A stretch of DNA of 64,000 nucleotides from Cantharellus purpuraceus (Eukaryota; Basidiomycota; Agaricomycetes; Cantharellales; Hydnaceae), in the NCBI GenBank assembly GCA_025174535.1, contig JALBUN010000048.1, positions 1,550,001 through 1,614,000 of the forward strand, given 5' to 3'. How positions within the stretch are numbered: the stretch's first letter is position 1; each line of letters begins with the position of its first letter. Made by a program: the position numbers and the translations under genes. Under the pieces are notes generated by a model that made no database searches, was not told the DNA's origin, and saw only the letters and a program-made list of their open reading frames with translations. This document shows positions 1,298 to 56,253 of this stretch, in pieces.

Positions 1298-4200
1298 ATG
1301 GCAGACCCACCAGAAATTGAACTAGACGAGAACAGCGCTGGAGAATGGGCATTGGGTGACATTGCTACGTACGTCTCCACGCAATAGCCTGGAATTGACT
1401 GCAAATATTCAAGTATTGCAGGGTTTCGACGGGACGCGATAGATTGGGATGTGGAAGCCGTCCTCCATTGCCTCAATCACCTCGCCAAGGGTCACCATTT
1501 CAGGACGAGGAGCTTGATGAGCTTCACAGATTCTCGGATACCACGATCAAATATGAGGATGGCAATACCATCGGTGCGTTGCCAATCTTTCGAAGAGCTG
1601 AGCAGTCTTATGTGATTCCATATTTAGATTGGATACAGGAAGAAGCAGCAGAACGTCTACGGAAATACGAACTCGCATCCCATAGAGGACTTCGTGGCTT
1701 ACTGCTGCCTCTGTGGGATGCTTCCCGTGTGTGGCTTGTGCTGATAGGTCTGCATGAAACGTCGGTCGCGTCTCATGGATTTACAGGCTTTACAGGCACA
1801 GGTCTAGGGGTGGGGGTAATCGGCGGCTGGCTTGATGTTCTCGTTGAATGGTATGGAATCTTTATCAAATTCTTAATTTGATTCTATTGTTCCTGTATAG
1901 GCTGAGTGACCTTCGCCACGGTCGTTGCGCCTATGGATTCTTCTACAATCAAGTTGCATGCTGTAGTGGTCTTGACCGTGATTCAGTCTTTCTGTATATC
2001 ACAGGAAATGTTCTCTGATTTGCTCTATGTAGCTGGCGAGCTATGCCAACCGTGGATGAGCTGGAGCCAATGGTTTGGCTTGAGGTACATTTTTATGCAA
2101 TCAATGCTCCAGGCCACAGTATATGTGGGACTTGCTGTGAGTCGACGATGAATGATGCGACACGATCTTATCGATGTTTCCACCAGATTGCATTCGCTGG
2201 AAGTGCCGCAATTCTGGTGAAATCATACGCCCCGTAGTACGTATAGTCTATTATATAACCTAACGGTTCACTAAGTCAACCAGTGCTTTTCACACTGGGA
2301 GTAAGTTTGGTTCTATTGCAGCTATTTCGACCTAATTATGTATTTCGCTGCAGTCCCGGAGATCAAGGCTGTTCGTCGTGTTATTTCTGATTCCTCTTAC
2401 ATGTCTTATTGGATTTCACAGATACTCGGCGGATACGTCCTAGACGAATTTTTAGGACCTTGGACACTACTGATCAAGGCTGCTGGACTTGCCTTATCGG
2501 TAGCATCAGGTCTGTCTCTTGGGAAGGAGGTTGTTTGCGTCCTTGATTCGACTCGCCAACATCTCGCTGAACCTAGACTAGGGTCCTCTGGTTCATGTCA
2601 GTTGTGCAATGGCATATGTCTTGTCAGGCTTCTTTGAGGGTCTCCGCAACAATGAAGGTTTCTCAGGGCCTTTTTTTTTGCTGTACGCGTGCTGAGATCT
2701 GTTTCTGATAGCACAAAAAAGAAAAATGCTGGCGGCAGCTGCTGCAGCTGGTGTTTCTGTTGCATTTGGTAGTCCTCTTGGTGGAGTCCTTTTTGGTCTT
2801 GAAGGTATGTCAAGTGCTTGCCAGTGTCCTCAAGGCTTTGATCCTCTTCTTAGAGTTGGACACGTTTTCGGATGAGCATGTCGTATGGCGCGCGTTTGTG
2901 ACGTCTGCGATCGCTGCAGTTGCACTGCAATATGTCGATCCTTTCGGCACGTCCAAACTTGTCCTCTTTCAGGTGTGGTCAGACTAATAACAATAAAAGA
3001 ATGATATAAGCTGAATAATGAAACTATTTGGAAGGTGACAGCCACGAAGGAGCCCTGGAAAGCATTCGAACTCGTTTGTCTCAGTTTTGTTACGGTCGGG
3101 GCTGGGACTGATTGAACCTATTCTAGGTACCGTGGTTGGCGCTAGGAGTCATCGGAGTCAATCACCCTATGTGGCTTCCAAGGCCGTAACTGACATGTTA
3201 TTCTTAGGGCATCCTCGGTGCCTTCCTCATTAAGCTGAACGTGGCAGCTGCAGTATACCGAAGGAACAGCATAATCTCAGAATGGCCGCTCCTAGAAGTT
3301 GTCGCTGTCGCGGGCGCGACGGCCTCCCTCAGTTACTTAGTTATCTTCACTAGGTAAGAGAATACGCACTGTACTCGCTCGTCATGTCATCCATCATGTA
3401 ATTATGGCAGAGTGCAAACTTCAGAGCTTGTTTCTAACTTGTTCTTGGAGTGTGATCCTTTGAAGGGAGATTGGCACGGATTGTGCAAGTGAGTTGGGGG
3501 GTCTGCTTCGCTTGCCTTCTAGCTAAAAATTTGCCCCACCAGTCCCAATGCGTATCTTCAAAATATATTCTTACTCCTTGTGACAGCGGCGATCAAGTTT
3601 GGCTTGACTGCCTACACGTTCGGTTTAAAGGTATGTTATAGATTAGTACACACGCACGTCAGCCCGACATCCATACCTTTGTAGGTTCCAGCAGGCATAT
3701 TTCTGCCTACAATTGCAATCGGAGCTTCTTTAGGTCGTGCCATGGGTTTGCTTGTGTCCGTTTCTGTTCTTTTTTATAAAAAACTTTCAGTAACGTCGAC
3801 CGTCTGGCTTTCAGACAAGCCGTACACCATTCATATCCATCGGCTTGGGTGTTCTCAGCTTGTCCCCCAGATCCCAGTGCACGTTGCATCTCACTTGGTT
3901 TCTATGCTGTCATTGGTGCTTCGGCCCTGTTGGGTGGGGTGACTAGAATGACTAGTATGTCACCCCGTAATTGACAATGTTGCCGATGCCCCTCACTCAT
4001 GCCAATACAATAGTTTCGTTGGTAGTGATTTTATTCGAGGTACATATCATATATTTTCATCATTTAATAGAAGTGGCTGACGCTAGACAGTTGACGGGAG
4101 CCCTCAGTCATGTTCTTCCAATCATGCTTGTCGTGATGGTATCGAAATGGGTCGGGGATGCGTGTGGGAAGGAGGGCATTTACACGGCTTGGATTACTCT

Positions 4201-4918
4201 CCGGGCATATCCATGGCTCGCTCCAATTGAACACCGGGACCACGGAGCGGCAGCATCCACTATCATGACGCCAGTGAAAAGGCTTATAACAATCAATGGT
4301 GTCAAGAGCTCGTTAAGTGACCTTGGTTCATAGTCATTTCTCCTAGTTGCCTGGTTGCTCAATACGAGATCATGGTCTAGACGCTATCATCAAGACTTAT
4401 GATTATTACGGATTTCCTGTGGTAGATGGTGAAAAACTCTTGGGCTTTGTCACTCGCGACAAACTTCGTCTCGCGTTAGGTATGTATCGTTGTGTAATGT
4501 ATCCGCTCGACTATGCATTCAAATTTTGTTACAGGCCCGTTAATTGCAGAACGCAGCAATGGTGGTGAGGCCTCGTGCACGTTCCTGCGGCACGCCTATC
4601 CCTTTTCTGGTATAACTCTATCATCGACATTAGAGAGAGCGCCAATGCAATTTCGAAGTGGAATGGCACAAGAGCTGGTGGTCAGCATATTCCAGAGACT
4701 GGTAAGCTTTCGCTATCAACTTACACGTATACCTCAGTAGTTTCACCTCTTTCCAGAACTTAAGATATGCACTATTCTCCAGTGCGGGAAGACTAACTGG
4801 GTTAATAACAAAGCGGGACGTGGTTCGTTTACTGATGACCCATTACGAGGACACTCCTGCTGGTGCGCTCGCGCGTGATGGTAAAGGTGTCGATCATGAA
4901 TGGAATGTTCAGTGGTGA
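1298..4918 (+). CDS. CLC-family chloride channel or chloride/proton exchanger with C-terminal CBS domains
   Basis: The start is [20 protein letters not shown] at 1298. Splicing gives an N-terminal cytosolic part ending [15 protein letters not shown], then the membrane core. Visible CLC signatures are YAFHTGIPEIKA (filter loop), [36 protein letters not shown] (gating glutamate in GKEGP), [38 protein letters not shown] and [21 protein letters not shown]. Two CBS domains follow ([19 protein letters not shown], then [15 protein letters not shown]). The gene has more than ten small introns and a 17-base microexon at 2284-2300. The GKEGP glutamate is the residue that gates transport in exchangers of this family. 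The usual GSGIP filter reads HTGIP here. The protein probably acts in endomembranes or the plasma membrane like yeast Gef1; the location is inferred. It ends with a TGA at 4916-4918. Confidence 0.9.
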
Positions 4919-5062: not shown

Positions 5063-6394
5063 ATGTCGCTACAGAGCGACCTTGCATCAGGGTCTCAGTT
5101 TCTGTCACCCCACAAAACACCTTCGCGACAAACACTCTCTTCTAGACGTTCTAAATCGTCTTTACATGGCGATGGTGCCACACGGGGAACTAGTCTCGCA
5201 CACGAGCTCGCCGCAGCGCTCATGCCGGAGCCAAGTGCAGGCTCCCGGCTATTAGCTGACGAATTTGGCATCGAATTCGATGAAGGGGCGGAAGGTATTG
5301 AGGAAGATTCAGAGCAACACGACGCGCCGCCTGAGATGGTGGTGAGCGACGCGATGGACAGCACTTTCCGACAGTCTTCCGAATGGGCATCCAATGGCGA
5401 CGCGTTTGCAGATACCAAGACATCACAGGGTGGCTTTGATGTGCGACAGGCACTCCATGATCCGTTAACAATACTCAGCAAGGACCTCGAAACTACTGAT
5501 TTATTTATTGCGAATCTACGTCGGATGGACACTGATCCTTCATCCACAACAACGCACTTAGGCTCTTCAGCATTTGAACCACCCTTAGAGAGACTAGCAT
5601 CGGATGTTATACGACGGATAAATGACAGTGCTCGAGAGCGGGAAGGACAGGTGCGCGAGCTCCGGGAATTTGAAAAAGAGTTCAGACGGATTGCTGGTCA
5701 AGCCGGCGGCAATGATATACTTGGAGAGTTGGATGAGCTGGAGGAAGTGGTCGGATTCCCTGACGAGCCGAAGGAGAAGGAGTCAAAGTTAGAGAGTGGC
5801 CCTGATAACTTGCCACCTGTGGTGGAAGAAGAAGAGCCGATCGGACGACGAGATGCCAGCACAGACTGGGAGTTAGATCCAAATAGGGTCTTAGGGGACG
5901 AGGATGGTTTGGATTACGGTGACTCCGACCGACCAGAATCACCCTCGCCAGCGAAGGAATCCTCCCCTTTACCTCCACCACCACTTTCTGGCGTTCCTAC
6001 CCCCGCCAGCACAGTCACTCAACTTGCATATATGAGGTCGATTACACAGTCCCTAATACAATCCCTCACCACAGTCGTCGAGCATACCCAAGTGACTGGT
6101 GCCGCTACCGCCGAGGCGGGGCGCAAGATTCGCGCTCTTAAGAACAAGCTTGGAGGATGGCGCGCCGAATCGGAGAGCGCAGAGCGAAGCATGGAGAAGA
6201 TAGAAAAGTGGGAGGCTGCAGGTGGCATGAGTTCGCCTTTGTTGGAGAGTGGCTCATCTACTGGGTCGCCGAATGGGATTGGGCACGGAAAAGGTTTGAG
6301 GATGAAGCAAATCATGCAAGAGGAGCTAAGTGCTTTTGAGCTTGTGCTTGCGGAGGCAGGCAGGAGAACACAAGCTATAATGGTCGCATCCTGA
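5063..6394 (+). CDS. Uncharacterised acidic coiled-coil protein, 443 aa
   Basis: This is a single uninterrupted frame from ATG 5063 (context ccaccATG) to TGA 6394, unusual among the intron-rich neighbours. I do not recognise a domain. The N-terminal 60 residues are Ser/Thr-rich and basic (SLQSDLASGSQFLSPHKTPS). An acidic stretch follows (FDEGAEGIEEDSEQ). Around residues 175-240 there is a charged, probably helical segment (RRINDSAREREGQVRELREF). The middle is Pro/Ser-rich, and the C-terminal 110 residues are again helical and charged (AEAGRKIRALKNKLGGWRAE, then ELSAFELVLAEAGRRTQAI). No signal peptide or membrane segment is apparent. The layout suggests a cytosolic or nuclear scaffold or adaptor. 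It lies 144 bases downstream of the CLC gene in the same direction and converges on the methyltransferase gene. Confidence 0.8.
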   Translation: MSLQSDLASGSQFLSPHKTPSRQTLSSRRSKSSLHGDGATRGTSLAHELAAALMPEPSAGSRLLADEFGIEFDEGAEGIEEDSEQHDAPPEMVVSDAMDSTFRQSSEWASNGDAFADTKTSQGGFDVRQALHDPLTILSKDLETTDLFIANLRRMDTDPSSTTTHLGSSAFEPPLERLASDVIRRINDSAREREGQVRELREFEKEFRRIAGQAGGNDILGELDELEEVVGFPDEPKEKESKLESGPDNLPPVVEEEEPIGRRDASTDWELDPNRVLGDEDGLDYGDSDRPESPSPAKESSPLPPPPLSGVPTPASTVTQLAYMRSITQSLIQSLTTVVEHTQVTGAATAEAGRKIRALKNKLGGWRAESESAERSMEKIEKWEAAGGMSSPLLESGSSTGSPNGIGHGKGLRMKQIMQEELSAFELVLAEAGRRTQAIMVAS

Positions 6395-47477: not shown

Positions 47478-47698
47478 TGTTAGGGAAAACTCTAAATCAC
47501 CACAATTCTGTGAATGAACAGCTGAGAAGAATATCAAACCCTACTGCAGCATAACTCCAGAAATGATTTAATGTTTGTACTTTGGTTACAATCCTTTGTA
47601 ATGGTCAATGCAGACAATACACCAGAAGGTAATACATTTCTTAGCAGCAGGGAATTAATATGACTTCCAGAGTTTAGAGTTCATGGATGCTTAGGGGT
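47478..47698. repeat. Direct repeat, left copy (possible LTR-like end)
   Basis: The segment starts TGTTAGGGAAAACTCTAAAT and ends near TCATGGATGCTTAGGGGT. It matches 48281-48485 with scattered substitutions and small indels. The pair lies about 580 bases apart in the same orientation. Confidence 0.75.
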
Positions 47699-48280
47699 TC
47701 AGATATTCTGAAAAGAGGGGAATGCACTTAGAGGTGTTTTGGAACCTGCAAAATTATGGTGTTATGTTACACACTGGGTCTGATTGGGGGTCGGAGGTTG
47801 GGTCGGAGGTTTCGTTGGAGTTGGAGCACATCGTGGGGGTCGGAATGGACTTGGCTTCAGCTTATGTGCTGCACCCTCAATAATACCGGTGTCCAAGATT
47901 TTGGAGACAGAGTATGACTTAGAGAGTTAGGATTGGACTTAGGAACTAGGCGTGATTCAAATATTCAAACTGGGGAATGAAGTCCCCAGTCGGGCAACTT
48001 AAATACATATTTTGAAATCTAATAATAATTACTCTGGTGATGGGTCTCTGAGGCCAACGGCCTTACATGAGTATGTCCGAGTCCGATGGGGATGGATGTC
48101 TGGGTTCCTATGGTGATGCTGATGCATCAATCGGAACTGGAGACAGATGGGTGGAATTGGCAGTGACAATCGGACAGGTAGATGGAGACGGCGGTTTCCA
48201 AATGGAGTATAGATTTCATATGCATGGGGATCTGAGTGGATCGGACAGGGATCTGGATGTTAATGAATATAGTCATAACA
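47699..48280. other. Sequence between the direct repeats
   Basis: It contains another relic of the LTR family seen at 22.4 kb (TCGGAATGGACTTGGCTTCA near 47,840) and a GAT-rich stretch at 48,067-48,260 with an open frame of 81 codons (Gly/Asp-rich, probably chance). No intact gene. Confidence 0.5.
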
Positions 48281-48485
48281 TGTTAGGGCAAACTCTAAAT
48301 CACAATGAATGAGAAGAATATCAAATCCTACTGCAGCACAACTCCAGAAATGATTTAATGTTTGTACTTTGGTTACAATCCCTTGTAATGGTCAATGCAG
48401 ATGATACACAGGAAGGTAATACATTTCTTAGCAGTAGAGAATGAATAAGACTTCCAGAGTCTAGAGTTCATGGATGCTTAGGGGT
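48281..48485. repeat. Direct repeat, right copy
   Basis: It begins TGTTAGGGCAAACTCTAAAT and ends near CATGGATGCTTAGGGGT. See the left copy at 47478-47698. It is followed almost immediately by a truncated LTR of another family. Confidence 0.75.
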
Positions 48486-48487
48486 CC

Positions 48488-48627
48488 TGTTAAGTGCTGG
48501 ATACTAGGGGTTCAATGGAGTAACCAGAGTTTGGATGCTAGCAAGGGAAAGGAGGGGACTTCACTGTTCCAGTTTGACCAGAGACAGAGTGGAGACAATA
48601 ACTATTGAGTCAGATCGAGTGGACTTG
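48488..48627. mobile_element. Truncated LTR, same family as the 22.4 kb solo LTR
   Basis: It starts TGTTAAGTGCTGGATACTAG and follows the solo LTR through AGTAACCAGAG, GACTTCACTGTTCCAGTT and GATCGAGTGGACTTG. It is then cut exactly where the element 1 LTR begins (TGTGAGGG at 48628). The rest of the LTR is missing here, so element 1 inserted into it or replaced it. Confidence 0.7.
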
Positions 48628-52009: not shown

Positions 52010-52286
52010 TGTTAATGGGTGTCTTAGTTCACACTGTTGCACAGAACTCAACCAAGTGTATTGGTTGGGCGATGTGCTGTACAGTGTGGTAGTTACTAAG
52101 ATCTGTCTACTATATGTGGACCCACACGTGTACTTGGGTCCACTGGCTTATATAATAACTATACATATGCACCCATAGGGTGCATATATCTATCAATAAG
52201 ACAACATTCCTTAATGGAATGCTGCATACATTAATTATAACTATCTAGCTATAGACTATAATAAGTAAGTACCTTGGGTACTTACA
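52010..52286 (-). mobile_element. 3' LTR of element 2, hairpin-rich
   Basis: On the minus strand it runs TGTAAGTACC ... CCCATTAACA, 277 bases with TG/CA ends, preceded by the purine tract GAAGGGGAGGG (plus 52287-52297). Perfect stems inside it are 52116-52124 with 52135-52143 (9 bp), 52165-52174 with 52178-52187 (10 bp) and 52265-52273 with 52277-52285 (9 bp, three-base loop). Confidence 0.78.
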
Positions 52287-52686
52287 CCCTCCCCTTCATG
52301 ATCTCATTCAGTACCTTTTAATCATACAGCTCCTTATGAAGCTGTTCCAATGAGTTGGTGTACATATGGTCATATTGTTCATATGGCTCCAGAGGGGGAC
52401 GGCTCTCAGTTGTCCCTGATGTGGTTGCGGTATCCTCATCCACTTGAATGGATGAGGAGGATGCAATTGCTACTGCAGCATCCTGATTGAGTTCATGATT
52501 AAGTTGATCGTGACCTAAATGCTCAGCAAGAGAGTGTTTAGCAGCTTTATGAGCTGCTTGGGAGACTCCCTGAGTCTCCTGCTTTCGCTTACCAACCCTG
52601 GTGGGCTGTTTAAATGCTGCTCTGGAGGCGATGCATTTAGCAAACCCCCCTAATATAGCAGCATGATCAGGGGTGATGCCTCCTGA

Positions 52687-54255
52687 TCATCCAAACCAGA
52701 GTGCAAGCTCTAATTCAGTATGTTCTTTGGGGGAGCAATTCCCCCAATCATATGCTCCAGTGACTGAAGCATGAAAGGTGTCACCAAGAGTTGGTGAGAA
52801 CTTTTGACCACGGGTCAATAATCCCCAATGGCTGGGATTCTGGAACATAGTCCAGAGGTTCTTCTTAAATACAGAAGAACCCTTCTTGGGAGTGGCCTTT
52901 TGTAGCCACATCCAGATGTCCACATCAGACAGGTTCATCTGACTCCTGTCGGATGGCTGGGGGGACCCCATTAGGGTTTACTTGCCACCCCTGTATGAGG
53001 GCAAGTGTGTCTACTGGTGTGGTCGGTAGAGTGATGATAAGACTCGCATTATCAGCGCAAGCCAGTAGAGTCATTCTCTTGATGACTCTGCACATCGGTA
53101 CAGTCTGTTCTGCAAACGGCATGGCCAATGCCTTTTTATGGAGCAATACGAACTCTGGAGTGTCTGTATCACAGATGTTGAACCAGTCTGCCCTGATAGG
53201 GGTGGACTTGCCCAGAGGTTGCGGTGGGTGGCCAGTGACTGCTCTGGGGAGGTCAGCTGCAGTCATGAACCACAGTGCCCATTTGGGGAATGATTTCCCC
53301 ACATTGGCATGCTTGAGAGCATGCCCAAAATCATCCCAGCATTTGTACGCTGGGCTTCCTCCAGCATCTTCAATGCTGGGTCTTTTAATGTACAGCTGGC
53401 GTCACCAGCCATATATTCCTTTTGAAGCTGATCAATCTCAGCTTCAATTTCTGATAGGGCAAACTCTTTGAGTTTGCCTGGTTGCTTAGCACCCTTGGGG
53501 GTGCTAGCCAGGAGGAGGCCACGATTGTGGTTGTATCCCTCCCAGATTGAGTTGGTGTCATCCCAATCTTGACCCTTGAACCCTCGAGGATCAATCTGAG
53601 GCAATTTGCTTGGGCAATTGTCCTCCTCTTTGGTGAGATCGATCGTTTCCCGTGACGATGAAGCCACAGGCTGTGATGGCATAATGGCAGGCAATGATTT
53701 GCCTGCCATAGCACGCAATAGTGATGCTACTGGGGCCAAGCGTACCATCATGAGCTTGGTCTTGAATGGAGGAGGTGCTTTATTAGCAGCCTCCTTCAGT
53801 GTTTTTAACTCATCTCTGAGACAAGTTACTTTGGACTTCTCATTGTCAAGAAGTCCTTTGAGTTCTTGGACCTGCACAAACAGGTCCAAGTTATCCTTCT
53901 ACATCTTATCGTAGTCTTCATGATAAGGTGTCATGACATCATCTTCAATGTCACGTATAAGTTGCGGCCATGCAACTCTTAATGCTCTTTCCACCAAAGT
54001 GGTGGAAAGATATAGTCAGCCCCCATTTTGGGCCTTGATTAAGTGTGACATATATGCATCACACTTGTTGCACCTGTGAGGGTGATGGATGGCAGCACCA
54101 CCATGCCATCTGCCAATTTTCCAGGTCATCTCATCTTGATGACCCCTGATCATATCTGCAGCACTTGTTACTGGTGCTGCTGCTATGGAAGTTTGTTCAA
54201 CTTCCATTGGATGCTCATCCTGAGCATCCATCATCTCCCTTCTGAGAGATGACAT
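52687..54255 (-). pseudogene. Accessory reading frame of element 2 (between pol and 3' LTR), interrupted
   Basis: It starts MSSLRREMMDAQDEHPMEVE at 54255 and includes HPHRCNKCDAYMSHLIKAQN, whose HxxxCxxC is suggestive of metal binding. A TGA and then a TAG interrupt the frame (about 54,016 and 53,898), with LVERALRVAWPQLIRDIEDD between them. It continues LFVQVQELKGLLDNEKSKVT and LRDELKTLKEAANKAPPPFK (coiled coil), then LASTPKGAKQPGKLKEFALS. Two frame changes follow (about 53,290 and 52,950) with FNICDTDTPEFVLLHKKALA, LIQGWQVNPNGVPPAIRQES and LWTMFQNPSHWGLLTRGQKF, ending at 52687. The intact ancestor would be about 500 residues. No family recognised. Confidence 0.6.
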
Positions 54256-54685
54256 TTTGATTGAGGGGGGTTGTGGTGGTTTGAAGAAACACCACTAGCC
54301 TTTTATGGCTGGGCTTGAAAATTCTTTATTGAGAATTTTTTTAGTGACTATGTCACATGGGTGTAACGCAATTAATTATCACTTACCCCTTTCGTGCTAC
54401 TATGAGTAGCACAACAGTGAACTGCTCCCTATGGAAGCAGTTTTTTCTACCATTGAGCTGCCTATTGTTATGGTAGCTCTATCCTTATCTAGGAACTACC
54501 ATTTAATCGAGGTAGCTCCTCCTCCCCTTGTTGAGCTACTGTCATTGATGGTAGCTCTTTGTTGCATCCCACTAAAAGCTACCTTTATTCTTGGTAGCTC
54601 CACTTCCCCCCCTTGAGCTCCATTAGATCTTTGGGGCTCCATCTCTCTGAGAACTACCATCTATGAGGTAGTTCTCACGCTCAAG
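54256..54685. repeat. Non-coding segment of element 2 made of GGTAGCT-type hairpins
   Basis: Between the accessory frame and pol lie serial inverted repeats, many using the same word: CTACCAT/ATGGTAG, AGCTACC/GGTAGCT, GAACTACC/GGTAGTTC, TGCTACT/AGTAGCA and AACTGCT/AGCAGTT. No coding frame is present. Confidence 0.75.
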
Positions 54686-56245
54686 TCACCCTTGAAGTTC
54701 TAAATAATCATCTAGAGCTTCTAGGTCCTTACATGACGTGTAAGGTTCCCAGGTGATGTCTCCCAACATCCATAGAACTTGAAATTCAAGTTCTTTATCA
54801 CTTATCCATTGATGAGTGATGGTTTCATCAACGAGCCACTCCTGCTCGTCATTGTTCCCAAAGTCGTAAAATGACTTTGCTTCCCATTTTGGGAATCTCA
54901 CCTCATCATTCAGCACATATGGTCAAATGAGGCTGACGTGGAATGTAGGCGTAATGTGCCTACTAGTTAGTTCTGGTGGCAGTTCCAGTGTCACCATGAA
55001 AGCTTTATTATGGGCTTCAATTATTTTATAGGGCCCGATATACCTGGGCACTAGTTTGCTGGTTCTACCCTTAGGTAGAGTCAAGTTTTTTGTTGAGAGG
55101 TAGACTTTGTCACCTCTCTGGAAGGTTGGGCCTTCCCAACATTTCTTATTGGCATGAAACATCTGAACGATGTGACTTTCTATAATTACATTGTGTGCCA
55201 CTAGCAGGTTCATTTGAGCCTGCTGTGCAAATCATTTGACACCCTTGAATTTGGTGTCATTGTTAATGGGCATGCCTATTCTAGGCATGTACCTGTGGTT
55301 AAGCTCAAATGGAGTAAACCCCATTGTTGAACTTATGTTGGAGTTTAGTGCAAACTCCACCATTGGACACTTGTGTGCCCAATCCTTCTGATCACTTTGT
55401 ACAACAGTACAAAGTATTTGGCCAATAGAACAATTTGCTTGTTCCATTGCTCTGTCCATTTGCAGATGGAATGCTGTGGACATGAGGAGTTTCACTCCCA
55501 TTATCCGCTGTAGTTCACATGAAAAGATAGATGTGAATTTTGAATCTTGATCAGACATGATTGAGTCTGGTACACTGTGAAGGCATACAACTTCTTTAAG
55601 GAATAGCCATGCTACTCCTTTCACTGTTACACACATGTTCATAGGTATTATATGTACCTGCGACGTGAAGCAATCTATGACTACCAGTAGGTAGTCATAG
55701 TCATTTGATTTTGGTAATGGACCCATAAAGTCCATACCTATCAATTGCCAGGGCTGCTCTGGTACTGGCAAGCTATGAAGAAGCCCTGTGGGTTTCTTCA
55801 TACTGTCTTTGTTCATTTGGCACTTTGTGCACAAAGTGCAGAATGATTCGACATCAGTGGTCATGCTTGGCCACCAGTACGACTGTCAAATGTAATTTGT
55901 GGTTTTTAGTTGACCAAAATGGCCAACTACTTGGTGTGCATGGTTGATTATTATCTTGACCAGCCTCCTCCCCTTCAGGAATGCTGAGTGGGGTATACAG
56001 AAGATGTTGCGTCTGTATATTTTTGGTCCATATTAGACCATCATGCACACCAAATTGTGTGTGTTCTTTAGGTGCTTCCAGCACCTTAGAAAGGACAGTA
56101 TCCTTTCTATATGTACCTCATACAATCTGCACAAGGTTGATCCCATGCTTGACATGGGATCACAATGGTGTTCTGTCATCATCTGATGACATCACTCCAA
56201 CATCCTCTATTTCTTTAGAGGAATTAGAATCATCATCCAATGATT
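54686..56245 (-). pseudogene. Element 2 pol fragment: integrase and chromodomain-like end
   Basis: The order is KVLEAPKEHTQFGVHDGLIW, then CTLCTKCQMNKDSMKKPTGL (zinc finger end) and the core GMDFMGPLPKSNDYDYLLVV, SIMSDQDSKFTSIFSCELQR and STAFHLQMDRAMEQANCSIG. QRGDKVYLSTKNLTLPKGRT and LVPRYIGPYKIIEAHNKAFM follow, and finally LEFQVLWMLGDITWEPYTSC, a degenerate chromodomain. The pieces lie in three frames. The core's consensus HPQTDG.TER.NR reads HLQMDRAMEQANC; these changes (Pro to Leu, Thr to Met, Arg to Gln, Arg to Cys) are all single C-to-T or G-to-A steps, typical of methyl-cytosine decay. Two in-frame TGAs lie upstream (about 56,118 and 56,160). Confidence 0.8.
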
Positions 56246-56253
56246 CTGTTTAG

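What the first reader, a model, noticed from the sequence alone, without database searches (positions are those of the whole stretch)
52010..56250. A retrotransposon made of back-to-back perfect hairpins
Seen directly: across about 4.2 kb, adjacent inverted repeats form perfect hairpins every few tens of bases, in the LTR, in the accessory frame, in non-coding DNA and through integrase codons. Stems of at least 8 bp with loops up to about 12 bases that I checked base by base include 52116/52135, 52165/52178, 52265/52277, 52434/52449, 52663/52682, 52727/52740, 52857/52873, 53067/53082, 53424/53438, 53458/53470, 53487/53499, 53684/53699 (11 bp), 53865/53881, 53986/54001, 54041/54059, 54208/54221, 55394/55407, 55675/55690 (11 bp), 56138/56153 and 56226/56240 (arm starts), plus a 20-base palindrome at 55820. 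By chance one would expect about one such stem in this length. The 55675-55700 hairpin encodes conserved integrase residues YDYLLVVI, so it arises from codon choice and not insertion. The pattern begins at the LTR edge and ends at the junction with element 3, and I see no such density in elements 1 or 3. Possible causes are selection for a structured RNA genome (packaging, resistance to or feeding of RNA silencing), or template switching in reverse transcription that turns imperfect palindromes into perfect ones. I know of no described element like this.
Basis: partly seen in the sequence, partly recalled or inferred. Interest (0 to 1): 0.92.

Follow-up and report, generated by a model that had tools for sequence, protein, structure and literature searches.

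The report
Retrotransposon family saturated with perfect hairpins
A family of Ty3-type jumping genes carries perfect short hairpins, about one per 125 bases in the copy studied, in coding and non-coding DNA alike, and some hairpin loops are inverted between copies, which suggests that the hairpins were likely written by a copying enzyme that would use one arm as the template for the other.

Summary
Window 52010-56251 holds 34 perfect stems (8 bp or more, loop 3-12). The other 59.8 kb hold 4, and shuffles average 0.69. It is the truncated 3' part of a Ty3-type LTR retrotransposon family. All 20 loci fetched with flanks carry such stems, gag-pol included. Three other Ty3-type elements fetched from this genome and 15 distant relatives lack the density. 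Apparent compensation among close copies is CpG decay (43 of 44 cells). Against a second subfamily (72-80% identical) most stem positions are shared, and they differ half as often as the rest (37/540 v 110/824). Three results point to DNA-level copying rather than selection on the RNA: no excess of G.U over A.C; both strands fold equally well; and loops are exact reverse complements between copies at 8 family hairpins, one 10 bases long, a published mark of template switching. That the element's own reverse transcriptase did this, and why stems persist, is inferred. No such element appeared in my literature listings.

The parts
52010..56251 (-). truncated 3' part of the hairpin-rich Ty3-type element (coding strand minus)
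   Evidence: homology with other copies ends at these positions in the longest alignments
52010..52286 (-). 3' LTR, 277 bp, TG...CA
   Evidence: start groups of matches; 5' LTR copy in L016; ends read
52287..52296 (-). polypurine tract (coding strand AAGGGGAGGG)
   Evidence: sequence beside the LTR
53263..53889 (-). accessory reading frame, 208 aa
   Evidence: one relative at 38%; no Pfam family
55181..55981 (-). integrase region, two TGA stops
   Evidence: open piece 55232-55864 matches rve at E 2.2e-5, below the curated cut-off
52116..52143 (.). hairpin, stem 9, loop 10 (LTR)
52165..52187 (.). hairpin, stem 10, loop 3 (LTR); loop found in both orientations
52265..52285 (.). hairpin, stem 9, loop 3 (LTR); loop inverted in L070
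52433..52458 (.). hairpin, stem 10, loop 6
52561..52579 (.). hairpin, stem 8, loop 3
52663..52690 (.). hairpin, stem 9, loop 10; two-sided transversion in the second subfamily
52727..52747 (.). hairpin, stem 8, loop 5
52857..52881 (.). hairpin, stem 9, loop 7
53067..53089 (.). hairpin, stem 8, loop 7
53306..53325 (.). hairpin, stem 8, loop 4; loop inverted in L077
53422..53447 (.). hairpin, stem 10, loop 6
53458..53478 (.). hairpin, stem 9, loop 3; loop inverted in L077
53487..53506 (.). hairpin, stem 8, loop 4
53569..53594 (.). site of an imperfect hairpin here; perfect in L075 and L077 with the 10-base loop in opposite orientations
53684..53709 (.). hairpin, stem 11, loop 4
53833..53856 (.). 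hairpin, stem 8, loop 8
53865..53890 (.). hairpin, stem 10, loop 6
53986..54010 (.). hairpin, stem 11, loop 3
54041..54066 (.). hairpin, stem 8, loop 10
54185..54207 (.). hairpin, stem 9, loop 5
54208..54230 (.). hairpin, stem 10, loop 3, directly abutting the previous one
54318..54339 (.). hairpin, stem 8, loop 6
54394..54412 (.). hairpin, stem 8, loop 3
54648..54677 (.). hairpin, stem 11, loop 8
54774..54794 (.). hairpin, stem 9, loop 3
55271..55289 (.). hairpin, stem 8, loop 3, in integrase codons; loop inverted in L024
55339..55359 (.). hairpin, stem 8, loop 5
55394..55415 (.). hairpin, stem 9, loop 4
55675..55700 (.). hairpin, stem 11, loop 4, encodes YDYLLVVI
   Evidence: motif conserved in relatives
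55774..55802 (.). hairpin, stem 9, loop 11
55820..55839 (.). 20-base palindrome (stem 8, loop 4)
55994..56019 (.). hairpin, stem 8, loop 10
56087..56109 (.). hairpin, stem 9, loop 5
56138..56162 (.). hairpin, stem 10, loop 5
56226..56247 (.). hairpin, stem 8, loop 6

Best explanation
This Ty3-type retrotransposon family is saturated with Watson-Crick-perfect hairpins that were likely written and kept perfect by template switching, in which the enzyme copying the element, probably its own reverse transcriptase, would use one arm of an imperfect inverted repeat as template for the other. Shown: the hairpins; their presence in LTR, gag-pol and accessory region of the fetched copies; their rarity in the other elements examined; no preference for G.U over A.C; and loops that are exact reverse complements between copies, a published mark of a template switch inside an inverted repeat. 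Shown too: most hairpins predate the split of two subfamilies, and stem positions differ between these about half as often as the rest. Inferred: that the reverse transcriptase rather than a host polymerase did the writing; that arm copying, not point mutation plus selection, made the stems; and that stems persist because a change must then suit both arms, or because the hairpins help the element.
For: Perfect stems far above shuffles; family-wide and rare in three other Ty3-type elements of the genome (0, 2 and 3 stems) and in 15 distant relatives (27 in 92 kb); local spans only; invariant mismatches inside 8-bp stems are G.U 7 and A.C 10, and allowing G.U or A.C adds similar numbers of stems, with A.C ahead in L016; both strands fold equally; exact loop inversions at 8 family sites, five of them distinguishable from a plain complement, with no plain reversal and no complement-only case among 3,006 loop pairs differing at two or more places; loop inversion and arm homogenisation are the published products of template switching in yeast inverted repeats (PMC8604942); stem codons no less conserved than others, so the protein filtered what was kept.
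Against: No clean arm-copying event was isolated: the best candidate (55021) proved to be CpG decay in the other copies. Inversions are few, are mostly private to one or two copies, and one lies in an unrelated repeat; in yeast they arise without a retrotransposon, so they need not mark reverse transcription. Template switching alone does not obviously slow change at stems, yet stem columns differ less between subfamilies. The base bias predicted for intrastrand switching (G and T favoured in the 5' arm, PMC8794818) is absent: G 179 v C 219, T 219 v A 247.
Confidence: 0.48

Rival explanations
1. Selection for a folded single-stranded form that is not the coding-strand RNA alone (cDNA, cruciform DNA or both RNA strands) built and keeps the hairpins by ordinary point mutation; template switching leaves only occasional scars.
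For: Stem columns differ less between subfamilies than the rest (37/540 v 110/824, p 1.2e-4; LTR 3/107 v 17/115, p 0.0019); most stem columns are shared; a two-sided transversion at 52663-52690.
Against: Compensation by transversion at one hairpin only; at putative third codon positions the contrast is not significant (20/139 v 46/201, p 0.07); it is unclear what would require about a hundred diverse perfect stems.
Confidence: 0.27
2. Selection for secondary structure of the genomic or messenger RNA, as in RNA viruses with genome-wide ordered structure.
For: Strong folding of the coding strand, mean z -4.81, 20 of 21 windows below -2; hairpins by synonymous choice in integrase.
Against: Antisense folds equally; no G.U over A.C preference, rather the reverse in L016; no excess of pairing beyond about 30 bases.
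Confidence: 0.14
3. Host DNA replication writes the hairpins by template switching, with no special role of the element.
For: A loop inversion also in an unrelated repeat; such events are reported in yeast genes.
Against: Host replication copies every family, yet the others examined lack the hairpins, and stems in inserted copies decay at about the rate expected without repair.
Confidence: 0.09
4. Chance, base composition or an assembly artefact.
For: None found.
Against: Shuffles; the same hairpins in copies on many contigs.
Confidence: 0.02

Closest known systems
Ty3/gypsy LTR retrotransposons (Metaviridae)
   Same: LTR with TG...CA, polypurine tract, RNase H ahead of integrase, H2C2 zinc finger, Tf2-1-like SH3 domain; Ty3 Gag-Pol is the best solved relative.
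   Different: Saturated with perfect hairpins, unlike the other Ty3-type elements examined; has an accessory frame with one known relative.
Template switching between short inverted repeats in yeast (PMC8604942; abstract, introduction and one results section seen)
   Same: Perfect short inverted repeats with loops exactly inverted between relatives, also in codons.
   Different: There ten loop inversions over the genes of 50 strains; here eight in one element family that carries about a hundred hairpin sites in 4.2 kb.
Template-switch origin of RNA hairpins (PMC8794818; abstract and discussion seen)
   Same: Perfect stems explained by one arm copying the other.
   Different: Described for microRNA and rRNA genes; the 5' arm base bias proposed there is absent here.
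Genome-scale ordered RNA structure of RNA viruses (search listing only)
   Same: Structure spread over coding sequence, far below shuffled folding energy.
   Different: Here short perfect hairpins, equal on both strands, no G.U preference. That viral structure is an RNA-strand property is recalled.
Mosaic structure of the yeast Ty3 RNA genome (PMC11381356; abstract and one section seen)
   Same: A related element with structured RNA regions.
   Different: There structured regions alternate with dynamic ones, up to 30% of the RNA; no array of perfect hairpins is mentioned in what I read.
Sirevirus repeated motifs (PMC2829016; abstract only)
   Same: Symmetric motifs at high copy number in LTRs and non-coding DNA of a retrotransposon.
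   Different: There one motif with a CGG-CCG core; here each hairpin has its own sequence and coding DNA is included.

Membership tests
Ty3/gypsy retrotransposon | LTR with TG...CA ends and adjoining polypurine tract | tested here: met
   52010-52286 and 52287-52296
Ty3/gypsy retrotransposon | RNase H ahead of integrase in one copy | tested here: met
   L025: RNase H over cut-off at 3833-4249; SH3_Tf2-1 over and rve below cut-off at 5160-5939
Ty3/gypsy retrotransposon | Ty3-type capsid | tested here: inconclusive
   Ty3_capsid E 9.5e-6, 25.6 bits, below the cut-off of 29.1
Ty3/gypsy retrotransposon | reverse transcriptase domain | tested here: inconclusive
   the one open piece tried from that region gave no Pfam match (L012:3281-3577)
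Ty3/gypsy retrotransposon | target-site duplication | not testable with these tools
   the window copy is truncated; not looked for in other copies
Template-switch inverted repeats | exact loop inversion between relatives with matching flanks | tested here: met
   8 family sites; three cannot be told from a complement
Template-switch inverted repeats | one arm rewritten to match the other | tested here: inconclusive
   candidates; the checked one is CpG decay
RNA-level structure (ordered RNA genome) | folding energy well below shuffles | tested here: met
   mean z -4.81 on the coding strand
RNA-level structure (ordered RNA genome) | coding-strand preference: G.U kept, A.C avoided; antisense folds less well | tested here: not met
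RNA-level structure (ordered RNA genome) | hairpins form in cells and matter for transposition | not testable with these tools
   needs probing and transposition assays

The most novel reading that the evidence does not exclude
A retrotransposon lineage that rewrites its own genome into perfect mini-hairpins: its reverse transcriptase folds back on the new strand so readily that, over many cycles and through a filter of synonymous codons, coding and non-coding DNA alike have been turned into back-to-back DNA hairpins, which the element has kept since before its subfamilies split.
Probability: 0.33. Interest if true: 0.88.

Novelty: new variant of a known kind. Interest (0 to 1): 0.72.

Why it matters
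How perfect stems arise and stay perfect is an open question in RNA evolution, and template switching is one proposed answer (PMC8794818). Here one element family offers at least 40 copies in one genome, 103 hairpin sites (a stem of 7 bp or more in at least one of 19 aligned sequences) in 4.2 kb, visible loop inversions, two subfamilies and hairpin-poor Ty3-type elements in the same genome. Rates of arm copying, loop inversion and stem loss could be measured side by side. If the element's polymerase is the cause, it shapes its own genome down to codon choice.

Tried and rejected
Covariation among close copies: 44 two-sided Watson-Crick changes looked like compensation, but 43 are CpG-type transitions on both sides and 1 on one side, with CG, TG, CA and TA states mixed almost freely; discarded. 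Stem conservation among close copies (273/10262 against 1563/31766 outside) is about what ascertainment in the window copy gives. Of 13 loop-inversion rows, three were rejected after reading flanks (GCACTT: CpG decay; TGACTC and GAGTCA: a repeat lying in opposite orientation), three are one site (52165), and one lies in an unrelated repeat; the L070 case comes. Protein-level hairpin potential: the window integrase stood out against controls (z 2.33), but 120 homologues give mean ratios of 1.07-1.18 with a wide spread, so nothing is claimed. Base bias of intrastrand switching: absent. Arm-copying candidates: one checked (55021), rejected; the rest not followed. Rfam: no match. Relatives in viral contigs: none. 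A flank-based recount of the 52165 loop was uninformative because the flanks are themselves nearly symmetric; I rely on the oriented alignment and on flanks read. The fourth region crashed the script and gave no value. The host species was not identified.
Full report
What was checked. A scan for perfect stems of 8 bp or more with loops of 3-12 bases finds 38 in the 64 kb window, 34 of them inside 52010-56251. Dinucleotide shuffles of the element give a mean of 0.69 and a maximum of 4 in 200; the ratio grows with stem length (20 v 0.20 at 9 bp or more, 10 v 0.06 at 10 bp or more). Within the open integrase piece, codon-preserving shuffles give a mean of 0.93 stems of 7 bp or more against 8 observed, maximum 4 of 500. 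Inverted 6-mers are in clear excess only for spacers of 3 to about 19 bases; copy L016 also has a smaller excess at 0-2. These are local hairpins.

What it is. The minus strand is the coding strand. 52010-52286 is a 277-bp LTR (TG...CA) with a polypurine tract beside it; upstream lie an accessory region and the integrase (55181-55981), and the copy is truncated at 56251. The genome searched (G000) has 40.15 Mb in 50 contigs. Of 125 first-look candidates for a 633-bp integrase query, 40 were scored; these gave 40 long matches at 87-100% identity, some partial, and two 34-bp reverse matches. LTR and accessory queries had 437 and 167 candidates, 40 scored each. I fetched 20 copies with flanks; L017 and L022 duplicate or overlap L016 and L021 and were dropped from alignments. 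Pfam places the family with Ty3 elements (RNase H, H2C2 zinc finger and Tf2-1-like SH3 over cut-off; capsid and integrase core below; no RT match in the one piece tried). The best solved relative is Ty3 Gag-Pol.

Family-wide and, as far as examined, family-specific. The 20 fetched loci carry 9 to 55 stems of 8 bp or more in about 10 kb each, flanks and nested insertions included, also over gag-pol. Family-matching DNA has 5.34 stems per kb (582 in 108.9 kb), the rest 0.55 (94 in 171.3 kb); the rest includes stretches next to family DNA with several stems that my probes may lack. L033, a Ty3-type element with a 1341-aa open frame in the same genome, has none in 6.5 kb; the nearest other relatives L029 and L030 have 2 and 3 in 9.5 and 9.0 kb; 15 distant relatives from MAG records have 27 in 92.3 kb. 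No genome-wide count was possible.

Close copies tell little. They differ mainly by CpG decay. The 44 apparent compensatory cells (18 copies, 3,405 cells) are CpG-type transitions on both sides in 43 and on one side in 1. Substitution at non-CpG stem columns (273/10262) is about half that outside (1563/31766), which is what choosing stems in the window copy gives by itself; loops are at 219/3560. Inside the integrase matches of the family, stops are mostly TGA.

A deeper comparison. A second subfamily, 72-80% identical to the window copy (LTRs L034-L053, pieces L074-L078, parts of L014 and L026), shares most hairpins. Counting only differences fixed between the subfamilies, and defining stems from either side, 37 of 540 stem columns differ against 110 of 824 others (Fisher p 1.2e-4); 374 of the 540 are stem in both. 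LTR: 3/107 against 17/115 (p 0.0019). Accessory region: 34/430 against 93/702 (p 0.0064); its putative third codon positions 20/139 against 46/201 (p 0.07, not significant). The second subfamily rests on as few as two or three copies outside the LTR. Of 29 cells changed on both sides of a pair, 24 stay Watson-Crick, but compensation by transversion was seen at one hairpin only, 52663-52690, and many of the others can be CpG-type. So the hairpins predate the split and some constraint holds them, of modest strength outside the LTR.

Which nucleic acid. Were the coding-strand RNA the selected form, G.U pairs should be tolerated and A.C mismatches not. Among single mismatches inside otherwise perfect 8-bp stems that are invariant among copies, G.U are 7, A.C 10 and others 9. 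Allowing G.U raises the stem count of the window element from 34 to 74, allowing A.C to 81; in L016 from 29 to 51 and to 81. The A.C surplus in L016 would fit G-to-A change on an A-rich coding strand (31-33% A). Both strands fold equally well (mean z -4.81 and -4.75 over 21 windows each, against -0.41/-0.33 and -1.22/-1.13 in two control stretches). The stems look DNA-like.

Loop inversions. Between loci with equal arms and matching flanks, the loop of one copy is the exact reverse complement of another's at 8 family hairpins: a 10-base loop at 53594 (L075 against L077), CTCA/TGAG at 53325 (L077), AAA/TTT at 53478 (L077), GAA/TTC at 55289 in integrase codons (L024), ATA/TAT at 52187 (TAT in 6 of 42 aligned LTRs, in both subfamilies, not clustering by similarity), CAA/TTG at 52285 (L070), TGAA/TTCA about 70 bases upstream of the window's truncation (TTCA in L028 and L031) and AGA/TCT in pol (TCT in L025). 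A ninth lies in an unrelated repeat (L009, L023). Among 3,006 loop pairs differing at two or more places (both strands counted), none is a plain reversal and none a complement alone. Three of the eight (ATA, AAA, AGA) cannot be told from a complement. In yeast, loop inversion and arm homogenisation are attributed to template switching between inverted repeats (PMC8604942), and hairpins of RNA genes have been traced to it (PMC8794818).

Mechanism. I take template switching as the writer of the stems: it can make Watson-Crick-perfect arms in one step, acts over short spans, leaves no strand preference in pairing and inverts loops. Host replication copies all families, yet of those examined only this one is saturated, so copying by the element's own reverse transcriptase is the likely site; this is inference. 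Protein function filtered the outcome: stem codons are as conserved among 120 homologues as other codons (0.697 v 0.685, 0.625 v 0.617, 0.539 v 0.508 in three identity bands). Retention between subfamilies may come from coupling (a change must suit both arms) or from a benefit of the hairpins; I cannot tell which.

Against this reading. Clean arm-copying events were not caught; inversions are few and occur elsewhere in the genome and in yeast genes; the predicted base bias is absent; and template switching by itself does not explain slower change at stems.

Literature. Searches for hairpin- or palindrome-rich LTR retrotransposons and for template switching or quasipalindromes in retrotransposons returned no paper whose listing describes such an element (15 papers; 18; none). 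The library holds openly licensed papers only.

Noticed in passing
L009 near 6244, L023 near 6303: A 14-bp hairpin with a 3-base loop in an unrelated repeat, the loop GAG in one locus and CTC in the other: loop inversion is not confined to this family.
   Followed up: partly
L009-L032 and window 52010-56251: CpG decay dominates differences among copies; CpG observed/expected is 0.23 in L016 1-6400 and stops in family integrase matches are mostly TGA.
   Followed up: partly
L016 coding-strand 2518-3046: A stretch of about 528 bp nested in L016 also matches parts of nine other loci outside the family context, possibly an LTR or small element of another family.
   Followed up: no
L016 (G000:C12) and L017 (G000:C2): Two loci on different contigs nearly identical over the compared 4.9 kb (99.9%): a duplicated segment or two haplotypes.
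   Followed up: no
L033 (G000:C2:370500-377000) and further places: A Ty3-type family with long open frames (up to 1357 aa without stops) in many places, so possibly recently active, and without hairpins in the copy fetched.
   Followed up: partly
window 47523-47705 and 48310-48492: A 183-nt direct repeat pair, 92% identical, spaced 787 bp.
   Followed up: no
window 53263-53889 (-): The accessory frame has one relative at E 1e-3 or better (38%, P0121) in the protein search and no Pfam match: an extra gene of unknown role.
   Followed up: partly
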